A stretch of DNA of 64,000 nucleotides from Blastocatellia bacterium. Its GTDB lineage: Bacteria; Acidobacteriota; Blastocatellia; HR10; J050. A program made the translations under genes and the position numbers. Each line of letters starts with the position of its first letter. Position 1 is the first letter of the stretch. The stretch spans positions 62,001-126,000 of the forward strand of contig JALSQX010000067.1 in assembly GCA_026985075.1 (NCBI GenBank), written 5' to 3'. Shown piece by piece: positions 55,893-57,956 of the stretch. The notes beneath the pieces are model-generated. The model was not told the DNA's origin. It made no database searches and was given only the letters and a program-made list of their open reading frames with translations.

Positions 55893-57956
55893 ATGCATAA
55901 ACCGATCAAATATGTGGAAAAAGGATTGACCTATGTCGCCAATGTGCTGTGGATGGTCTTTGAGAAGCTCAACAGTATTCGGCCTAATCCATCATTCACG
56001 CCGGCGTGGTCGGATCGACCGTTATTGAAGTCCTGGCAGAAGGTGAAACCGCCGTTGGGAGTGCCGCGAGAGACCGATTCGCTCTGTCCCAAGTGCGTTC
56101 CCGAGATTCGACAGCAGATCATCGACGGAAAGCTCCCCGTGGACATTCTCCGACAGGAGCGACTCGGCGAGATCAAAGCCCGAATCATCGAGCGGGATGG
56201 TCAGATCTGGATGGTCAAGGATTGTCCCAAGCACGGGCACTTCGAGGATCTGATGGCGATCGATGCCGAATTTTTCAAGCGACTGGAACGCGTCTTCCCG
56301 GGCAGCGACATTCGAGCGCACAATGACGAGCGGTTGCACAACCACGGCAGCAGCACGATCAAGTATGGGCGGGGAGCGGTGCTCACCATTGATCTGACGA
56401 ATCGCTGCAACATGATGTGCGATCCCTGCTTCATGGACGCCAATCAGGTGGGGTTTGTGCATGAGCTCAGCTGGGAGGACATCAAGCAGTTATTAGACGA
56501 TGCGATCTCACTGAAGCCTCGACGGCAGATGTCGGTTCAGTTCTCCGGCGGAGAACCCACGCTCTCGCCCTACTTCTTGGATGCTATCCGTTATGCCCGC
56601 AAGCTGGGCTACAGCAGCGTTCAGGCCGCGAGCAACGGTATTGAGTTCGCCAAGAGCTTCGAATTTTGCCGGCAGGCGGCCGAAGCGGGGTTGCGCTACG
56701 TCTATCTCCAGTTTGATGGCATCGGCAATGCGGCCAATGCGCATCGCCGGGTGGGGAATCTCTTCGATGTGAAATTACGGGCCATTGAGAATCTGCACAA
56801 GGCGGGCATAGATATTGTGCCGGTGATCACCATCGTCAATGGGATCAACAACGAACAGGTGGGACGAGTGATTGAATTCGCGCTGGATAATCCCAAGAAG
56901 ATCCCCTTCCTCGCCTTCCAACCGGTGTCCTTCACCGGGCGCGACGAGGAGATCAGCGATGAGCGGCGGATGGCCCAGCGGTACACGCTGTCGCACCTGG
57001 CGCACGATGTGAAGCGACAGACGGGATTGGGCGAGCCGCTGCGCGATTGGTTCCCGCTCTCGTTCATGAGCACATTCTCCGACTGGGGCGATCTCGTCCA
57101 CGGTTCGCAGGCTCGCTGGGGTCAATATAGCTGCGGATGCCATCCCAACTGTGGCGTGGGCATGGCCATCATGGTGGATAAAGAGACCAAGGAGGCTGTC
57201 CCCATCACCGCTTTCTTGAACGCCGAGCGATTGGCCGAAGATGTCAAGAAGATCAATGACGCCGCCCGTGGTCGTACTCTGTCGCTGCTCGGCTTCGCTC
57301 TGGCCGTCATGCGCAATTACGACCCGTTTAAAGCGCCGACTCATTTCCGGCTCGTCGACATGCTGCAAAAGTTTGATAAGCATTTTGGGGGCACGGGTCG
57401 AGATTACGGTCAAGTGGCCGAGGATTGGTCGCGCGAGAACGTGGAGAAGCGGCGCCGAGACCGCTGGAATGCCCTGATCGTCGCCGGAATGTGGTTCCAG
57501 GACCTGTTCAATTACGACTTCCGGCGGACCGAACGGTGCATCATCCCTTATGCCACCCAGGAAGGAGAGATCTCGTTCTGCGCCTATAATACGGGAATCG
57601 GCTGGCGGAAGATCGTCGAGAAGATGCACATGACGGCCACCTTACACAAATGGTACCAGGAGCATGGACGTCATGAGATCTTCACTGGCGGTAAGAACGT
57701 GCCGCTGGCCAGCACAGAGCATTCGCTGACCTTGCGGGAGGAAATCATCACCAAGGAGGAACAGCGCGATCTGGATGAGCTGGGCATTCCGAAAAACTCC
57801 CGAGAGGAGAAGCGGCGGGCGCGACGACGACAGCCCCAGCCCAATCACGAGCAGATGGCCCGGCTCTATCGTCGCGTCATTCTGAACGAACAACTGGATT
57901 CACCCCCGCAATTAGTCCAAATCCAAATCGGGCGAAATAAGCGCATGAATGTCTGA
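55893..57956 (+). CDS. Radical SAM protein of the tetraether/membrane-spanning lipid synthase type
   Basis: 687 residues. The radical SAM cluster motif is RCNMMCDPC (C172, C176, C179), followed by SGGEPT (218-223). Before it is a metal-binding module SLCPKC (C65, C68) and KDCPKHG (C111), as in the methanogen tetraether synthase Tes (MJ0619 family) which has a rubredoxin-like site there. Further Cys groups are YSCGCHPNCG (C414, C416, C420) and C549/C563, suitable for auxiliary Fe-S clusters. Tes and bacterial Mss enzymes couple the ends of two lipid chains through sp3 C-C bonds. ATG 55893 has AAGGAGG 6 bases upstream; a TTG at 55839 has none. The substrate call is by family and context. Confidence 0.78.
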   Translation: MHKPIKYVEKGLTYVANVLWMVFEKLNSIRPNPSFTPAWSDRPLLKSWQKVKPPLGVPRETDSLCPKCVPEIRQQIIDGKLPVDILRQERLGEIKARIIERDGQIWMVKDCPKHGHFEDLMAIDAEFFKRLERVFPGSDIRAHNDERLHNHGSSTIKYGRGAVLTIDLTNRCNMMCDPCFMDANQVGFVHELSWEDIKQLLDDAISLKPRRQMSVQFSGGEPTLSPYFLDAIRYARKLGYSSVQAASNGIEFAKSFEFCRQAAEAGLRYVYLQFDGIGNAANAHRRVGNLFDVKLRAIENLHKAGIDIVPVITIVNGINNEQVGRVIEFALDNPKKIPFLAFQPVSFTGRDEEISDERRMAQRYTLSHLAHDVKRQTGLGEPLRDWFPLSFMSTFSDWGDLVHGSQARWGQYSCGCHPNCGVGMAIMVDKETKEAVPITAFLNAERLAEDVKKINDAARGRTLSLLGFALAVMRNYDPFKAPTHFRLVDMLQKFDKHFGGTGRDYGQVAEDWSRENVEKRRRDRWNALIVAGMWFQDLFNYDFRRTERCIIPYATQEGEISFCAYNTGIGWRKIVEKMHMTATLHKWYQEHGRHEIFTGGKNVPLASTEHSLTLREEIITKEEQRDLDELGIPKNSREEKRRARRRQPQPNHEQMARLYRRVILNEQLDSPPQLVQIQIGRNKRMNV

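What the first reader, a model, noticed from the sequence alone, without database searches (positions are those of the whole stretch)
55893..57956. Tes/Mss-like radical SAM enzyme with extra Cys groups and a long C-terminus
The N-terminal CPxC...CPxHG module and the CxxxCxxC core are as in tetraether synthases, but the protein is 687 residues, longer than archaeal Tes at roughly 500. YSCGCHPNCG and C549/C563 suggest auxiliary clusters. The first metal site shows three Cys and a His rather than four Cys. It may represent a distinct bacterial clade.
Basis: partly seen in the sequence, partly recalled or inferred. Interest (0 to 1): 0.7.

Follow-up and report, generated by a model that had tools for sequence, protein, structure and literature searches.

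The report
Acidobacterial membrane-spanning lipid synthase, slimmed-down variant
This gene most likely makes the enzyme that welds the tails of two bacterial lipids into one membrane-spanning lipid; it belongs to a large, already noticed group of acidobacterial relatives of an archaeal enzyme, but the whole group appears to have lost one of the archaeal enzyme's iron-sulfur clusters, and here the gene sits beside genes that probably turn ester lipids into ether lipids.

Summary
The ORF is real (ATG 55893, stop to 57956, 687 aa). It is a full-length relative of archaeal tetraether synthase: 7TOL E 6e-67, model vs 7TOM Z 34.7 over 478 residues. It misses NCBI's Tes cut-off (322 of 450 bits). Relatives occur in 163 of 297 Acidobacteriota genomes, so it is neither rare nor unknown. 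The real oddity was missed: all 93 clade rows lack the Cys of MJ0619's N-terminal auxiliary [Fe4S4] cluster, kept by 14 of 14 other complete Acidobacteriota Tes-type rows; all 93 carry an invariant CxC (C414, C416). Downstream lie a radical SAM protein, a TetR regulator and three proteins that tile a single-chain PlsA/Ger-like ester reductase; a sibling genome keeps the order. Best reading: tail-to-tail coupling of iso-branched chains plus ester reduction, giving ether-linked membrane-spanning (brGDGT-like) lipids. The chemistry is inferred, not shown. New variant of a known kind; interest 0.5.

The parts
55893..57956 (+). Tes/Mss-family radical SAM protein, 687 aa (P0001)
55899..55976 (+). 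N-terminal amphipathic helix, residues 3-28, probable membrane contact (inferred)
   Evidence: predicted helix, block pLDDT 82-95; hydrophobic moment 0.54 for residues 1-18 and 3-20
56085..56234 (+). rubredoxin-like metal site C65, C68, C111, H114
   Evidence: C 93 of 93, H114 92 of 93 rows; C111/H114 align with MJ0619 C33/H36; Zn_ribbon_HMPTM E 8.6e-14
56319..56345 (+). place of the lost N-terminal auxiliary cluster; invariant H143, H149, H151 in place of the Cx3Cx2C motif
56406..56429 (+). radical SAM cluster motif C172x3C176x2C179
57126..57155 (+). YSCGCHPNCG: C414 and C416 (unassigned), C420 = MJ0619 C338 (C-terminal cluster)
   Evidence: C414, C416, C420 in 93 of 93 rows
57489..57581 (+). 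rest of the C-terminal cluster site: M533 (= Met439), C549, C563; Y553 = Tyr459
   Evidence: 93 of 93 rows each
57666..57953 (+). C-terminal extension, residues about 592-687, beyond the end of the MJ0619 match
   Evidence: conserved blocks in the clade, mostly low-confidence model, no counterpart in MJ0619
58244..59527 (+). rSAM2: radical SAM protein with a C-terminal twitch/SPASM-like Cys set
   Evidence: PF04055; C105, C109, C112, C334, C352, C382, C386 in 23 of 23 rows, numbered in P0005
59644..60312 (+). TetR-family regulator, nearest FadR/FasR-type models but below their cut-offs
60567..62084 (+). P0002, FeS-type subunit resembling 2-hydroxyacyl-CoA dehydratase / double-cubane proteins; C-terminal part of a split PlsA/Ger-like reductase
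   Evidence: tiles residues 1080-1466 of the 1525-aa chain in L154; fold Z 9.5; invariant C74, C112, C115, C397 in 7 of 7 rows
62136..64000 (+). P0003, double BcrAD/BadFG ATPase, 727 aa; the gene runs past the window end (stop in L006 at 2317-2319)
   Evidence: PF01869 twice; tiles 31-648 of the L154 chain
52094..55494 (+). upstream lipid genes: AMP-dependent acyl ligase 52094-53803, lipid kinase 53800-54702, PlsC-type acyltransferase 54706-55494
   Evidence: same order in sibling genome G001

Best explanation
P0001 is a bacterial membrane-spanning lipid synthase of the tetraether-synthase superfamily. Inferred working, by analogy with MJ0619: a membrane-contacting enzyme binds two phospholipids with iso-branched tails; the radical SAM cluster (C172/C176/C179) makes a 5'-deoxyadenosyl radical that takes a hydrogen from a terminal methyl; the carbon is held on a sulfur of the C-terminal [Fe4S4] cluster (C420, C549, C563, M533); a second radical event joins the other tail, giving an iso-diabolic-acid chain. 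Shown here: the fold, the radical SAM motif, the rubredoxin-type site and every mapped C-terminal-cluster residue are kept, while the N-terminal auxiliary cluster motif is gone from the whole clade. In this genome the neighbouring ATP-driven reductase, split in three proteins, is inferred to turn glycerol ester bonds into saturated ether bonds, so the product would be ether-linked membrane-spanning lipids of the brGDGT kind. rSAM2 is inferred to be an accessory enzyme of the ether branch.
For: Homology and fold. C420, C549, C563, M533 and the Q268, S271, R275, F106 and Y459 equivalents kept in 93 of 93 rows. Loss of the N-terminal cluster motif in the clade against 14 of 14 complete other Acidobacteriota Tes-type rows and MJ0619, which keep it. 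The clade is found in Terriglobales, Bryobacterales, Blastocatellia and Vicinamibacterales records, which I equate from recall with subdivisions 1, 3, 4 and 6, the ones in which iso-diabolic acid was found in cultures (PMC13274423 passage). Gene order acyl ligase - lipid kinase - PlsC - tes - rSAM2 - TetR - split reductase is kept in sibling genome G001, and tes - another rSAM - reductase recurs in L017. Reductase and clade co-occur: 24 of 29 reductase genomes have the clade against 119 of 268 others, Fisher p 1e-4, not corrected for kinship. Two activation domains are the mark that PMC13274423 ties to Ger.
Against: No activity of an acidobacterial Tes homologue was found in the papers I could read; PMC11868695 says bacterial Tes homologues are unconfirmed. 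The score is below NCBI's Tes cut-off. In most clade genomes tes is not beside a reductase: 3 of 91 loci (own, L135, L017), and 119 of 143 clade genomes lack the reductase at E 1e-60. Solibacter usitatus has Tes homologues and brGDGTs but no detectable iso-diabolic acid (PMC10087280). Active-site parts of the model (173-189, 562-572) have pLDDT under 50.
Confidence: 0.7

Rival explanations
1. P0001 does a different radical reaction on lipids (for example joining two tails within one phospholipid only, or methylation or ring chemistry on an already coupled chain), another protein being the coupling enzyme.
For: Low identity to MJ0619 (about 30%), loss of one cofactor motif, long stem of the clade (2.97 changes per column). 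S. usitatus has Tes homologues but no detectable iso-diabolic acid.
Against: All mapped C-terminal-cluster residues and the labile Met are kept in 93 of 93 rows; a sulfur-bound substrate intermediate on an [Fe4S4] cluster is the mechanism reported for MJ0619.
Confidence: 0.2
2. C414 and C416 with H149/H151 form a new metal site that takes over the role of the lost N-terminal cluster (compatible with the best explanation).
For: C414, C416, H149 and H151 are invariant in 93 of 93 rows.
Against: C416 is present in many Tes types that keep the N-terminal cluster, and C414 is present in L170-L173, which also keep it, so the gain is not tied to the loss. No coordinates were available to measure distances.
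Confidence: 0.2
3. The downstream three-gene reductase acts on an acyl-CoA or aromatic substrate (benzoyl-CoA reductase or dehydratase type) and only happens to lie next to tes.
For: Best solved folds of P0002 are 2-hydroxyisocaproyl-CoA dehydratase, double-cubane protein and benzoyl-CoA reductases; the TetR next to it resembles acyl-CoA-type regulators. Adjacency to tes in only 3 of 91 loci.
Against: It tiles a single-chain 1525-aa protein with two activation domains and DUF2229 and co-occurs with the clade.
Confidence: 0.2
4. Ordinary four-cofactor Tes with additional auxiliary clusters.
For: Tes fold and Cys-rich motif 412-421.
Against: Only 12 Cys, 11 invariant: nine fall on known sites, leaving C414 and C416; the N-terminal cluster motif is absent.
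Confidence: 0.04

Closest known systems
Tes / GDGT-MAS (MJ0619, PDB 7TOL/7TOM; NF045702)
   Same: Fold over 478 residues, radical SAM motif, rubredoxin-type CxxC...CxxH site, C-terminal cluster Cys plus labile Met, Tyr459 and SAM-site residues.
   Different: No N-terminal auxiliary [Fe4S4] motif; invariant C414xC416 and H149/H151; N-terminal amphipathic helix, 42 instead of 20 residues inside the rubredoxin site, C-terminal extension of about 95 residues; below the NF045702 cut-off.
Bacterial Mss (Sahonero-Canavesi et al. 2022, paper not held; described in PMC13274423)
   Same: Proposed reaction, and the Tes-like catalytic architecture attributed to Mss in PMC13274423.
   Different: No validated Mss sequence could be fetched, so the sequence relation was not tested.
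Other Acidobacteriota Tes types (L153, L170-L183)
   Same: Same superfamily, about 33-38% identity, same C-terminal site.
   Different: They keep the N-terminal cluster motif and are 536-579 aa long where complete.
PlsA / Ger (plasmalogen synthase / glycerol ester reductase)
   Same: Two BcrAD/BadFG activation domains, DUF2229 domain, dehydratase-like FeS part.
   Different: Split into three polypeptides with the FeS part encoded first; not compared with a validated Ger sequence.
TrsS-like radical SAM (NF045646; L185-L187)
   Same: NF045646 is the second-best NCBIfam match of P0001.
   Different: L185-L187 form a separate clade and have the N-terminal cluster motif; that they are TrsS is my label, not tested.

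Membership tests
Tes / GDGT-MAS | NCBIfam NF045702 curated cut-off (450 bits) | tested here: not met
   322.4 bits, E 4.4e-96
Tes / GDGT-MAS | radical SAM CxxxCxxC motif and domain | tested here: met
Tes / GDGT-MAS | rubredoxin-like site CxxC...CxxH | tested here: met
   definition from PMC9433317
Tes / GDGT-MAS | N-terminal auxiliary [Fe4S4] ligated by C73, C77, C80 and His | tested here: not met
   no such Cys in 93 of 93 clade rows
Tes / GDGT-MAS | C-terminal auxiliary [Fe4S4] site with labile Met439 | tested here: met
   C420, C549, C563, M533, 93 of 93 rows; the Cys assignment is mine from the alignment
Tes / GDGT-MAS | overall fold | tested here: met
   7TOM Z 34.7, rmsd 3.0, 478 aligned; next other protein Z 19.5
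Tes / GDGT-MAS | coupling of lipid tails | not testable with these tools
   needs an assay
Mss | over 30% identity and E at most 1e-30 to a validated Mss (criterion in PMC13274423) | not testable with these tools
   criterion; the source paper is not held and no validated Mss sequence was available
Ger (PlsA-like glycerol ester reductase) | two PF01869 activation domains | tested here: met
   two stretches in P0003
Ger (PlsA-like glycerol ester reductase) | DUF2229 and dehydratase-like FeS part | tested here: met
   P0004 DUF2229 E 2.5e-45; P0002 fold; tiling
Ger (PlsA-like glycerol ester reductase) | one long chain, as in L154 | tested here: not met
   three separate ORFs here; two in L150-L152 and L017
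Ger (PlsA-like glycerol ester reductase) | ester to alkyl ether conversion | not testable with these tools
   needs an assay

The most novel reading that the evidence does not exclude
The clade is a natural deletion experiment on tetraether synthase: a working tail-coupling enzyme without the N-terminal auxiliary cluster. In this genus it sits in a nearly complete brGDGT locus with a three-subunit glycerol ester reductase and a radical SAM partner (rSAM2) that elsewhere is embedded inside the reductase cluster (L206) or adjoins tes (L012), making rSAM2 a candidate for an unassigned step such as sn-2 ether formation, chain methylation or cross-bridging.
Probability: 0.25. Interest if true: 0.75.

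Novelty: new variant of a known kind. Interest (0 to 1): 0.5.

Why it matters
brGDGTs are used to reconstruct past temperature and pH, yet which acidobacterial enzymes make them is unsettled. A single locus that pairs a Tes-type enzyme with a Ger-type reductase gives a concrete gene set to express. Lloyd et al. (PMC9433317) state that the roles of the remaining metallocofactors of tetraether synthase are not clear; a clade of some 143 of 297 sampled genomes without the N-terminal cluster suggests that it is dispensable and makes that directly testable.

Tried and rejected
Selenocysteine in rSAM2 of family f29: one search reported in-frame stops, but in the loci read the stop lies outside or upstream of the conserved part, so rejected. 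A conserved tes-reductase operon across Acidobacteriota: rejected, 3 of 91 loci. Sequence matches of P0002 and P0004 to solved structures: none useful; only the fold search of P0002 helped. The protein at 50706, tandem repeats, tRNAs and Rfam in the window gave nothing bearing on the finding. Plasmid search for relatives found only distant matches, 36 records, none covering 80% of the query. Placement of L170-L173 next to the clade: the tree program warns that long branches meet between L171-L173 and the clade, so I do not lean on it. Measuring Cys-Cys distances: not possible, no coordinates are laid out. ElbD and iso-fatty-acid genes in this genome were not searched. Whether the clade exists outside Acidobacteriota could not be tested: the search for related loci kept the best 80 of 589 (78 placed in Acidobacteriota, 2 unclassified).

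Literature: I did not see loss of the N-terminal cluster or this gene cluster in what I read, but the key 2022 Mss paper is not held, so I do not claim it is unreported. Seen: PMC8941075 passages; PMC9433317 abstract and passages; PMC13274423 abstract, sections 5, 15 (part 1 of 2), 23 and passages; PMC10087280 passages and section 18; PMC11868695, PMC8788747 and PMC11186832 passages. Other papers only as search listings.

Rows dropped: one search used 95 of the 105 rows (ten duplicates or fragments left out), of which 93 form the clade and two are L147 and L153; some of the 93 come from near-identical genomes. L147 also lacks the motif. One search left out L181 and L184 (truncated) and used a hand-picked 42 rows.

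Full report
What is there. Window 55893-57956 encodes a 687-residue protein, P0001, with a good ribosome-binding site and a start kept in relatives. The window is part of contig C67 of a 5.2 Mb, 98.7% complete genome. Its relatives place it in Acidobacteriota; one same-class genome (G029) has its tes on a contig of 88,980 bases, the same length as the contig of a record named Chloracidobacterium sp. UBA7656, class Blastocatellia, so Blastocatellia is an inference.

Family. Pfam gives a zinc ribbon (58-122) and a radical SAM domain (168-330). NCBIfam's best model is tetraether lipid synthase Tes, E 4.4e-96 over residues 61-580, 322 bits against a cut-off of 450. The solved relative is MJ0619 (7TOL), E 6.3e-67. 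The AlphaFold model (mean pLDDT 76, pTM 0.81, 30-sequence alignment) matches 7TOM at Z 34.7, rmsd 3.0, 478 aligned of 498 residues; the best entry of another protein is MoaA at Z 19.5. The radical SAM loop 173-189 and residues 562-572 are low-confidence, so the lipid channel was not examined.

Metal sites. PMC9433317 gives MJ0619's ligands: rubredoxin iron by C9, C12, C33, H36; N-terminal [Fe4S4] by C73, C77, C80 and a His; C-terminal [Fe4S4] with labile Met439. Alignment of 93 clade rows with MJ0619 (chain residues 34-515 only, so C9 and C12 were matched by motif, not aligned) shows C65, C68, C111 in 93 of 93 and H114 in 92 of 93; C172, C176, C179 in 93 of 93; C420, C549, C563 and M533 in 93 of 93, aligned with C338, C455, C470 and M439; Y553, Q343, S346, R350 and F180 in 93 of 93. 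The assignment of C338, C455 and C470 as C-terminal ligands is mine from the alignment; the passages I read name Met439 but not those Cys. The N-terminal cluster Cys are missing in 93 of 93; the stretch holds invariant H143, H149 and H151 instead. Fourteen of 14 complete other Tes-type Acidobacteriota rows (L153, L170-L180, L182, L183; L153 and L183 are near-identical) and three TrsS-like rows keep the motif. C416 occurs in many of these too; C414 is shared with L170-L173 only.

Tree. In a 42-row tree the rows without the motif (24) are one side of a branch with support 100/100 and a long stem; motif-bearing rows surround them if the TrsS-like rows are taken as outgroup, which implies loss. 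The program warns of long branches meeting between the clade and L171-L173.

Spread. 38 of 39 near relatives have the family at E 1e-30; in the phylum 163 of 297 genomes match at E 1e-60, 143 of them in the strong-score class that I equate with the clade and 20 only weakly. Zeng et al. already pointed to acidobacterial Tes homologues, and Halamka et al. proposed Tes plus PlsAR homologues for brGDGT synthesis in Solibacter usitatus, so neither the family nor the idea of the pairing is new.

Surroundings. On the same strand lie an acyl ligase, a lipid kinase and a PlsC-type acyltransferase upstream, and rSAM2, a TetR regulator, P0002 (505 aa), P0003 (727 aa, two BcrAD domains) and P0004 (391 aa, DUF2229) downstream, the last two running past the window. 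These three tile one 1525-residue PlsA/Ger-like chain from another acidobacterium: 1080-1466, 31-648 and 728-1045. The P0002 model's ten best matches under VIA-align are all 2-hydroxyacyl-CoA dehydratase, double-cubane or benzoyl-CoA reductase chains, best Z 9.5, rmsd 4.9-5.0, about 275 aligned. The sibling genome G001 keeps the whole order; L017 keeps tes - another rSAM - P0002 - fused P0003/P0004; 3 of 91 loci show the association. The reductase is in 9 of 98 relatives by P0002, all within the genome's order, and in 29 of 297 phylum genomes by P0003. Of those 29, 24 have the clade, against 119 of 268 without (p 1e-4); rSAM2 is in 25 of 297, 11 with the reductase (p 2e-6) and 19 with the clade (p 0.006). 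These tests ignore kinship. rSAM2 lies inside the reductase cluster in L206, next to it in L152 and next to tes in L012, but six f29 genomes have it with neither.

Reading. Fold and ligand conservation argue for the Tes reaction; the tail of an iso-C15 chain is structurally identical to the isoprenoid tail, a point made by Zeng et al.. PMC13274423 places iso-diabolic acid in subdivisions 1, 3, 4 and 6 and links double activation domains with Ger. Hence the proposal: coupling by P0001, ester reduction by P0002-P0004, product ether-linked membrane-spanning lipids. Shown: sequence, predicted fold, gene order, co-occurrence. Inferred: substrate, product, order of the steps, role of rSAM2, membrane contact of the N-terminal helix.

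Verdict. Observation right; interpretation half right. It is a member of the Tes superfamily but not a canonical Tes, since a defining cofactor site and the curated cut-off were tested and not met; that does not weaken the claim that it works like one.

Noticed in passing
L008, L009, L011, L136, L138, L139, L141, L142, L143, L145, directly upstream of tes: A different radical SAM protein of roughly 340-390 aa precedes tes by 41-372 bases in 10 of the 14 loci that I took as same-class; the window's own genome has a 66% relative on contig C33 (L100) instead. Possible second tes partner.
   Followed up: partly
L006:3425-4669 (-), window-equivalent 65425-66669: A radical SAM/SPASM protein lies on the opposite strand after the reductase genes in all three loci that carry the tes-reductase cluster (own, L135, L017).
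   Followed up: no
L153 (G004) and L183 (G005), same order as the window genome: Relatives carry a second, shorter Tes type with the N-terminal cluster motif beside the P0001 type; the window's genome shows no second copy at E 1e-30.
   Followed up: partly
L147 (G034), with similar copies in seven other relatives: A second paralogue of the P0001 type at 53-55% identity, lacking most of the C-terminal extension.
   Followed up: no
window 50706-51722: 338-aa protein without a Pfam match above cut-off; only a weak ferredoxin-like hit.
   Followed up: no
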